DNA of 37,019 bases, from the NCBI GenBank assembly GCA_030065195.1, contig JASJDE010000006.1, forward strand, positions 1 through 37,019, in the 5' to 3' direction. The notes beneath the pieces were generated by a model, which saw nothing but the letters and a program-made list of their open reading frames with translations, ran no database searches and was not told the DNA's origin. Each line of letters begins with the position of its first letter. Position 1 is the stretch's first letter. The position numbers were made by a program, and so were the translations under genes. Positions 23,703 through 24,166 of the stretch are shown piece by piece. Source of the DNA: Erythrobacter sp. (lineage in GTDB: Bacteria > Pseudomonadota > Alphaproteobacteria > Sphingomonadales > Sphingomonadaceae).

Positions 23703-23840
23703 ATGTCGGATCGGATCGCGAAGAAGCCCTATCGGCAGCCAGTGTTGTCCATATTCGGCGCATTTTCGCGCCTGACTGCGGGCGGTAGCGGATTGCAGAC
23801 CGAGTCGGGGGCGAACATGAACCCCAACCGGCGTCCCTGA
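23703..23840 (+). CDS. Lasso peptide precursor 1: MSDRIAKKPYRQPVLSIFGAFSRLTA|GGSGLQTESGANMNPNRRP
   Basis: 45 aa. Leader motif YxxPxLxxxGxxxxxT (Y10, P13, L15, G19, T25), penultimate leader Thr, and Glu34 at core position 8 for a macrolactam. 11 nt after the cyclase stop. The ORF track carries it only as an extended 63-aa form. Confidence 0.9.
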   Translation: MSDRIAKKPYRQPVLSIFGAFSRLTAGGSGLQTESGANMNPNRRP

Positions 23841-23913
23841 CCAAACCCATAGAAACCCTTTGTGAACCTTAGTTCGCTAATGCAGTACGGATGTTGCGAT
23901 GCGAGGTTCGCAA

Positions 23914-23945
23914 AATCGCTGATTCGCCCCGAAGAATCAGCGATT
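23914..23945 (+). promoter_or_regulatory. Intergenic stem-loop between the two precursor genes
   Basis: AATCGCTGATTC-gccccgaa-GAATCAGCGATT: perfect 12-bp stem with an 8-nt loop and no following poly-T tract. Confidence 0.7.
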
Positions 23946-24025
23946 GCGTATTGTTGTGCATTGCGGTAACTACCTAGTCGAAGCGGACGCACGGCGTGCG
24001 ACCGAATTGATTGACGGAGTTTTTG

Positions 24026-24166
24026 ATGACCGACCGTATCGACAGCAAGCCTTATTCGTCGCCCAAGCTGGTGACCTATGGTGCTTTCTCGCAGCTGACG
24101 GCTGCCGGCAGCGGTCCGCTGTTCGAAACCGGCCCCGGCATGATGGGAACGAAGCGTCGCCCATAA
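24026..24166 (+). CDS. Lasso peptide precursor 2: MTDRIDSKPYSSPKLVTYGAFSQLTA|AGSGPLFETGPGMMGTKRRP
   Basis: 46 aa, below the ORF track cutoff. Leader aligns residue for residue with precursor 1 (Y10, P13, L15, G19-A-F-S-x-L-T25-A), Glu34 in the same register, ends in RRP. GGAG RBS about 6 nt upstream. Confidence 0.92.
   Translation: MTDRIDSKPYSSPKLVTYGAFSQLTAAGSGPLFETGPGMMGTKRRP

What the first reader, a model, noticed from the sequence alone, without database searches (positions are those of the whole stretch)
23703..24166. Two tandem lasso precursors in identical register, missed by a 60-aa ORF cutoff
Precursor 1 MSDRIAKKPYRQPVLSIFGAFSRLTA|GGSGLQTESGANMNPNRRP and precursor 2 MTDRIDSKPYSSPKLVTYGAFSQLTA|AGSGPLFETGPGMMGTKRRP share leader positions Y10, P13, L15, G19 and T25, and both have Glu at residue 34. 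With the penultimate-Thr rule the ring closes at core position 8 in both. The ring interiors and loops differ (GLQTES versus GPLFET; ANMNPN versus PGMMGT) while the RRP end is conserved. This suggests duplication and diversification of the loop with the tail held constant.
Basis: partly seen in the sequence, partly recalled or inferred. Interest (0 to 1): 0.8.

Follow-up and report, generated by a model that had tools for sequence, protein, structure and literature searches.

The report
Twin lasso peptides, possibly methionine-methylated
A marine-type bacterium carries genes for two small knotted (lasso) peptides together with a kinase and an enzyme that looks like a protein-arginine methyltransferase but has lost its arginine-binding parts; comparison with dozens of relatives suggests that this enzyme methylates methionine in the peptide tail, a modification for which I found no report in lasso peptides.

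Summary
Two lasso precursors lie at 23703-23840 and 24026-24166, inside a complete cluster: nucleotidyltransferase, exporter, cyclase C, A1, A2, HprK-like kinase, PRMT-like methyltransferase (MTase), B1, B2. The Glu8 ring is supported: E8 is kept in 21/21 related cores. The pair is old: both peptides have orthologues under purifying selection, and relatives carry two or three precursors.

The kinase keeps its catalytic motif, and Ser/Thr sits at core position 2 or 3 in 72/72 cores, so ring phosphorylation is likely (precedent BsfK). The MTase has a PRMT fold, but every lasso MTase examined has lost PRMT hallmark motifs that non-lasso paralogues keep. Clusters with the MTase carry Met in the post-ring tail (52/54 cores); related clusters without it do not (1/18) and carry Arg instead (18/18). 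About four or five MTase losses on the cyclase tree fit this, too few for significance after phylogenetic correction. Most likely the MTase methylates tail Met to a sulfonium; arginine or C-terminal methylation remain rivals. No chemistry was tested.

The parts
18788..20110 (+). N: uncharacterised nucleotidyltransferase (long GTG ORF; the true start is probably further in)
   Evidence: PF14907 NTP_transf_5, 113 bits, residues 92-346; conserved in the cluster of relatives; counterpart of bsfN (PMC10368454)
20112..21779 (+). D: ABC exporter
   Evidence: PF00664 and PF00005 over cut-off
21796..23691 (+). C: lasso cyclase, asparagine-synthase type (start chosen at MSGICGIF inside the TTG ORF 21736-23691)
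   Evidence: NF033535 486 bits, PF00733; SGGMDS motif
23703..23840 (+). A1: lasso precursor 1; leader 23703-23780, core GGSGLQTESGANMNPNRRP 23781-23837
   Evidence: orthologues in L061, L063, L161
24026..24166 (+). A2: lasso precursor 2; leader 24026-24103, core AGSGPLFETGPGMMGTKRRP 24104-24163
   Evidence: orthologues in L061, L063, L161, P0241-P0244
24181..25158 (+). K: HPr-kinase-like peptide kinase, expected to phosphorylate core Ser3
   Evidence: TIGR04352 45.7 bits and PF07475 27.8 bits, both below their cut-offs; H...GETGAGKS...GDD motif intact
25155..26309 (+). M: PRMT-fold SAM methyltransferase without the PRMT double-E and THW motifs
   Evidence: PF22528 PRMT_C 34.6 bits, over cut-off; profile match to PRMT2 E 1.7e-43; Foldseek to PRMT2/1/8; motif counts
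26394..26675 (+). B1: PqqD-type leader-binding protein
   Evidence: PF05402 63.7 bits; NF033536 56 bits
26726..27202 (+). B2: leader peptidase, transglutaminase-like
   Evidence: NF033537 80 bits, cut-off 33; PF13471; Cys/His/Asp motif stretches

Best explanation
This is an operon for two phosphorylated and methylated lasso peptides. B1 binds the YxxPxL leaders, K phosphorylates Ser3 of each core, the PRMT-fold MTase methylates methionine in the tail (to S-methylmethionine, a permanent sulfonium cation), B2 cuts after Ala26 (Thr at -2), C closes Gly1 or Ala1 onto Glu8, and D exports. Shown by sequence: the gene set, the precursors, the motifs, the predicted PRMT fold, the loss of PRMT residues, and the link between MTase and tail Met across the family. 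Inferred: every chemical step, the order of steps, and Met as the acceptor.
For: Complete lasso gene set. E8 and Ser/Thr3 in 21/21 window-type cores. Kinase motif intact, with the precedent that BsfK phosphorylates core Ser3 (PMC10368454). Met after the ring in 52/54 MTase+ cores against 1/18 MTase-free cores, Arg in 21/54 against 18/18. Window-type cores have no Met in the ring (0/136) but 16% Met in the tail. The cyclase tree needs five changes of MTase state, and the MTase-free lineages except orphan L228 have Met-free basic tails. Genomes G087 and G038 carry an isolated precursor+MTase pair with a Met tail, while their MTase-free clusters have Met-free tails. Loss of the double-E and THW motifs argues against Arg as acceptor. 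MTase-free relatives have Arg where MTase+ relatives have Met, as if a tail cation were kept by other means.
Against: L218 has the MTase but no Met in its core (SGTQPPTENGGQPQKHP), and L175 has Met only in the ring. Only two independent contrasts lie on well-supported branches, five on the best tree, so a sign test cannot reach 0.05; plain Fisher values ignore relatedness. Within the window clade Met (20/21) and Arg (19/21) are almost equally conserved. The distant MTase branch is only 22-27% identical to the window's and may use another acceptor. No PRMT-fold enzyme acting on Met is known to me.
Confidence: 0.45

Rival explanations
1. The MTase is a genuine arginine methyltransferase acting on the conserved Arg-Arg of the tail, giving methylarginine lasso peptides.
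For: PRMT fold and PRMT_C domain. RRP, RRA, RKL or similar ends in most window-type cores: tail Arg in 19/21. The window enzyme keeps the second Glu of the double-E loop.
Against: First Glu is Asp and THW is lost in all lasso MTases, while non-lasso paralogues keep them. L067 (57% identical MTase) has no Arg in its core. Tail Arg occurs in only 21/54 MTase+ cores but in 18/18 MTase-free cores.
Confidence: 0.2
2. The MTase methylates something not tied to one side chain: the C-terminal carboxylate (as StspM and probably LasF do), a backbone amide, or Asn/Gln. Met is favoured in these tails for another reason, such as membrane or metal contact.
For: C-terminal methylation of lasso precursors is known (PMC9266682). 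L218 and L175 would then not be exceptions.
Against: It leaves unexplained why Met disappears from the tails where the MTase is lost. The enzyme is of PRMT fold; StspM was modelled on mitomycin-7-O-methyltransferase.
Confidence: 0.25
3. Ordinary two-peptide lasso cluster whose kinase and methyltransferase act on something else or are inactive; products are plain G1/A1-E8 lassos.
For: The core biosynthetic genes alone would suffice for a lasso peptide.
Against: K and MTase overlap in the operon (24181-25158, 25155-26309) and are kept across genera with intact motifs.
Confidence: 0.1

Closest known systems
bsf lasso cluster of Bradymonas sediminis (BsfA, B1, B2, C, D, K, N; PMC10368454)
   Same: Same gene set with split B, HprK-like kinase and nucleotidyltransferase; YxxPxL leader at -17 to -12; Ser3 in the core; the kinase acts on the precursor with help from B1
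   Different: bsf has no methyltransferase gene in the published list, one precursor, Ile instead of Thr at -2, and Asp8 instead of Glu8
Paeninodin-type phosphorylated lasso peptides (PadeK/ThcoK kinases)
   Same: HprK-like kinase in a lasso cluster
   Different: Their phosphate is on a C-terminal Ser (PMC10368454); both window cores end in Pro
C-terminally methylated lasso peptides (lassomycin LasF, StspM)
   Same: SAM methyltransferase in a lasso cluster
   Different: O-methyltransferases acting on the C-terminal carboxylate (PMC9266682); here a PRMT-fold enzyme
Aspartimide lasso peptides (cellulonodin-2, lihuanodin)
   Same: Methyltransferase tailoring of a lasso peptide
   Different: PIMT homologues acting on a ring Asp (PMC9266682); window rings have no free Asp
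Type I PRMTs (PRMT1, PRMT2, PRMT8, HMT1)
   Same: Rossmann domain plus beta-barrel over most of the length (TMt 0.74-0.84)
   Different: Double-E and THW motifs altered; an extra C-terminal helical segment (helices from residue 318 on) that by eye resembles the end of PqqD

Membership tests
Lasso peptide cluster (split B1/B2) | Precursor with YxxPxL leader, Thr at -2, Gly/Ala/Ser at core 1 and Asp/Glu at core 7-9 | tested here: met
Lasso peptide cluster (split B1/B2) | B1 (PqqD), B2 (transglutaminase-like peptidase) and C (asparagine-synthase-like cyclase) next to the precursor | tested here: met
Lasso peptide cluster (split B1/B2) | Threaded, macrolactam-closed product | not testable with these tools
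   needs LC-MS/MS and thermal or carboxypeptidase tests
Lasso precursor kinase (BsfK, PadeK, ThcoK type) | H...G..G.GKS...DD catalytic motif | tested here: met
   HASAVEIGGRLALFLGETGAGKSTLAASLHKSGHRLMGDD at residue 122; motif from PMC10368454
Lasso precursor kinase (BsfK, PadeK, ThcoK type) | Acceptor Ser/Thr in the core (position 3 as in BsfA, or C-terminal Ser) | tested here: met
   Ser3 in both window cores; Ser/Thr at 2 or 3 in 72/72 cores; no C-terminal Ser
Protein arginine methyltransferase (PRMT) | PRMT fold (Rossmann plus beta-barrel) | tested here: met
Protein arginine methyltransferase (PRMT) | Double-E loop and THW loop | tested here: not met
   First Glu is Asp in 72/72 aligned lasso MTase rows (some loci held twice); THW is LVY or IxR; 15 non-lasso relatives keep Glu at the first position and mostly HW
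Protein arginine methyltransferase (PRMT) | Arg in the substrate of every family member | tested here: not met
   Tail Arg in 21/54 cores with MTase, though present in both window cores

The most novel reading that the evidence does not exclude
The cluster makes lasso peptides with S-methylmethionine (sulfonium) in the tail, installed by a PRMT-fold enzyme repurposed from arginine to methionine. The sulfonium would supply the tail cation that MTase-free relatives encode as Arg or Lys.
Probability: 0.4. Interest if true: 0.85.

Novelty: new variant of a known kind. Interest (0 to 1): 0.6.

Why it matters
I found no report in the searched library of a PRMT-fold tailoring enzyme in a lasso cluster, nor of methionine methylation in a lasso peptide. 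If right, it adds a permanently charged residue to lasso chemistry, gives a case of a PRMT fold changing its acceptor, and gives a rule for predicting the product from the genes. It also corrects the masses anyone would look for.

Tried and rejected
Arginine methylation of the RR tail was my first idea, from the PRMT_C hit; I downgraded it after the family survey. The oxygenase-like ORF as a confounder of the Met link: 20 of 36 distant MTase+ loci lack it and still carry Met. A plasmid megablast gave only rfbA matches. Window-type cyclases without MTase were sought in 381 family genomes: only G231 (with MTase) and a distant G667 cluster (without) turned up, so the window clade itself offers no MTase-free contrast. 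Literature searches joining lasso peptide with arginine methyltransferase, S-methylmethionine, methionine-rich, S74 or tail fiber found nothing on point. The RNA between the precursors folds strongly in one sequence, but four sequences give little covariation.

Full report
CHECK. The two ORFs are as written: 45 aa at 23703-23840 and 46 aa at 24026-24166. They lie in one + strand run: NTP_transf_5 (18788-20110), ABC exporter (20112-21779), lasso cyclase C (21796-23691), A1, A2, HprK-like kinase (24181-25158), PRMT-like methyltransferase (25155-26309), B1 PqqD (26394-26675), B2 (26726-27202). C keeps SGGMDS, B2 its Cys, His and Asp stretches, and the kinase its H...GxxGxGKS...DD motif.

AGE OF THE PAIR. 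The window is contig C139 of an 87% complete assembly. Named loci with the same kind of cluster are mostly Erythrobacter, Aurantiacibacter and Novosphingobium. Relatives G110 (L061) and the MAG record L161 have three precursors, G079 (L063) two. Window A1 against its L061 orthologue shows 19 synonymous and 5 nonsynonymous codon differences, A2 14 and 3; against L161, 17/9 and 16/1. The 185-nt spacer matches the spacer before the last precursor of L061 (131 identical positions), so the window differs from L061 by one precursor unit. The pair is therefore an old, maintained set rather than a recent duplication.

RING AND KINASE. All 21 window-type cores examined have Glu8 and Ser/Thr3. Over 72 cores of the wider family Ser/Thr is at position 2 or 3 in all. 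BsfK, a kinase with the same catalytic residues, phosphorylates Ser3 of BsfA (PMC10368454). Neither window core has the C-terminal Ser used by the other known lasso kinases. Ser3 phosphorylation here is inferred.

THE METHYLTRANSFERASE. It hits PRMT_C above cut-off. A 24-sequence profile matches PRMT2 at 1.7e-43. The AlphaFold2 model (pLDDT 84.8) matches PRMT2, PRMT1, PRMT8 and HMT1. But the lasso-linked enzymes have Asp for the first Glu of the double-E loop in 72/72 aligned rows (some loci are held twice, from different collections) and have lost THW; 15 non-lasso PRMT-like proteins from the same order keep the first Glu, nearly all keep the second, and most keep HW. The fold test is met and the catalytic-signature test is not. 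It probably works as a SAM methyltransferase of PRMT fold, but I do not file it as an arginine methyltransferase.

WHAT DOES IT METHYLATE? Lasso clusters were collected from relatives by MTase, B2 and cyclase searches and read for precursors. After removal of duplicates, 54 cores come from MTase+ clusters and 18 from related MTase-free clusters. Met is present after the ring residue in 52/54 against 1/18; Arg in 21/54 against 18/18. Apart from Gly (49/54), no other residue is near-universal in MTase+ tails. In window-type cores Met is never in the ring (0/136) but makes 16% of tail positions. The cyclase tree needs five changes of MTase state; the MTase-free lineages are {L134, L140}, a 13-row group within L130-L160, L226, L227 and L228. 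All but L228 have Met-free, basic tails. L228 is an orphan A+C pair in genome G009, which holds a separate MTase cluster without a readable precursor (L083). Conversely, G087 and G038 have a precursor+MTase pair alone (L075, L079) with Met tails, while their full MTase-free clusters (L149, L148) have Met-free tails. Among precursors with an S74 follower, the five with an MTase have Met in the tail and L227, without one, has none.

LIMITS. The association is clear in the counts but rests on few independent events: two pairs on well-supported branches, five on the best tree, and a sign test cannot reach 0.05. L218 (MTase, no Met) and L175 (Met only in the ring) are exceptions. Inside the window clade Met (20/21) and Arg (19/21) hardly differ. 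The Met reading for the window leans on the wider MTase family, whose distant branch is only 22-27% identical; the two branches might use different acceptors. PRMT-fold sulfur methylation has no precedent known to me. The precursors without a match to the leader pattern may have been missed, and the S74 cores were cut by eye at the SD motif.

NOVELTY. Lasso precursors, split B proteins, HprK-like kinases and methylated lasso peptides are known. A PRMT-fold MTase tied to tail Met was not found in the papers searched, a library that lacks most subscription journals. I rate it a new variant of a known kind, with a possibly new modification.

Noticed in passing
L165:7400-8100, L167:7400-8000, L171:7400-8000 (same as L215), L211:8000-8700, L212:6450-7050, L227:6566-6964: Lasso precursors of about 120 aa in which leader and core are followed by a Peptidase_S74 (endosialidase chaperone) domain starting at an SD motif, e.g. 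GSLGNVGDGGIMTMAM|SDPRAKQN. PF13884 is over its cut-off. A search found 219 related proteins, some named tail fiber domain-containing protein. If the S74 domain cuts itself off at that Ser, as in endosialidases, it would set the C-terminus of the lasso peptide; no mention was found in the papers searched.
   Followed up: partly
L075:4950-6071 with its precursor upstream; L079: Isolated precursor+MTase pairs, with no lasso kinase, cyclase or B gene within several kb, in genomes (G087, G038) that hold a separate complete MTase-free lasso cluster.
   Followed up: partly
window:23841-24025: The spacer between the two precursors folds much more stably than shuffles (-68.6 kcal/mol, z -4.7), with a hairpin CGCTGATTC...GAATCAGCG also present in close relatives; four sequences give little covariation. 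It may set the ratio of the two peptides.
   Followed up: partly
L071:8299-9222: An ORF of about 307 aa between C and B2 in 16 of 36 distant MTase+ loci and in none of the MTase-free ones; no Pfam match, by eye reminiscent of an iron/2-oxoglutarate oxygenase.
   Followed up: no
window:15424-18769 and 27745-29142: The lasso cluster sits between dTDP-rhamnose genes (rmlABCD-like, by eye) and an O-antigen ligase-like gene (PF04932); similar neighbours (RmlD-like ends, Wzy-like gene) appear next to clusters in other genera (L071, L182, L188, L190, L212).
   Followed up: no
L093-L100: PRMT-like proteins outside lasso clusters in the same order keep the double-E loop and mostly the HW of THW; they look like real bacterial arginine methyltransferases of unknown role.
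   Followed up: no
L101-L160: Relatives in this genus are rich in lasso clusters: 81 of 200 genomes searched exceed the B2 cut-off, some with two or three clusters of different architecture.
   Followed up: no
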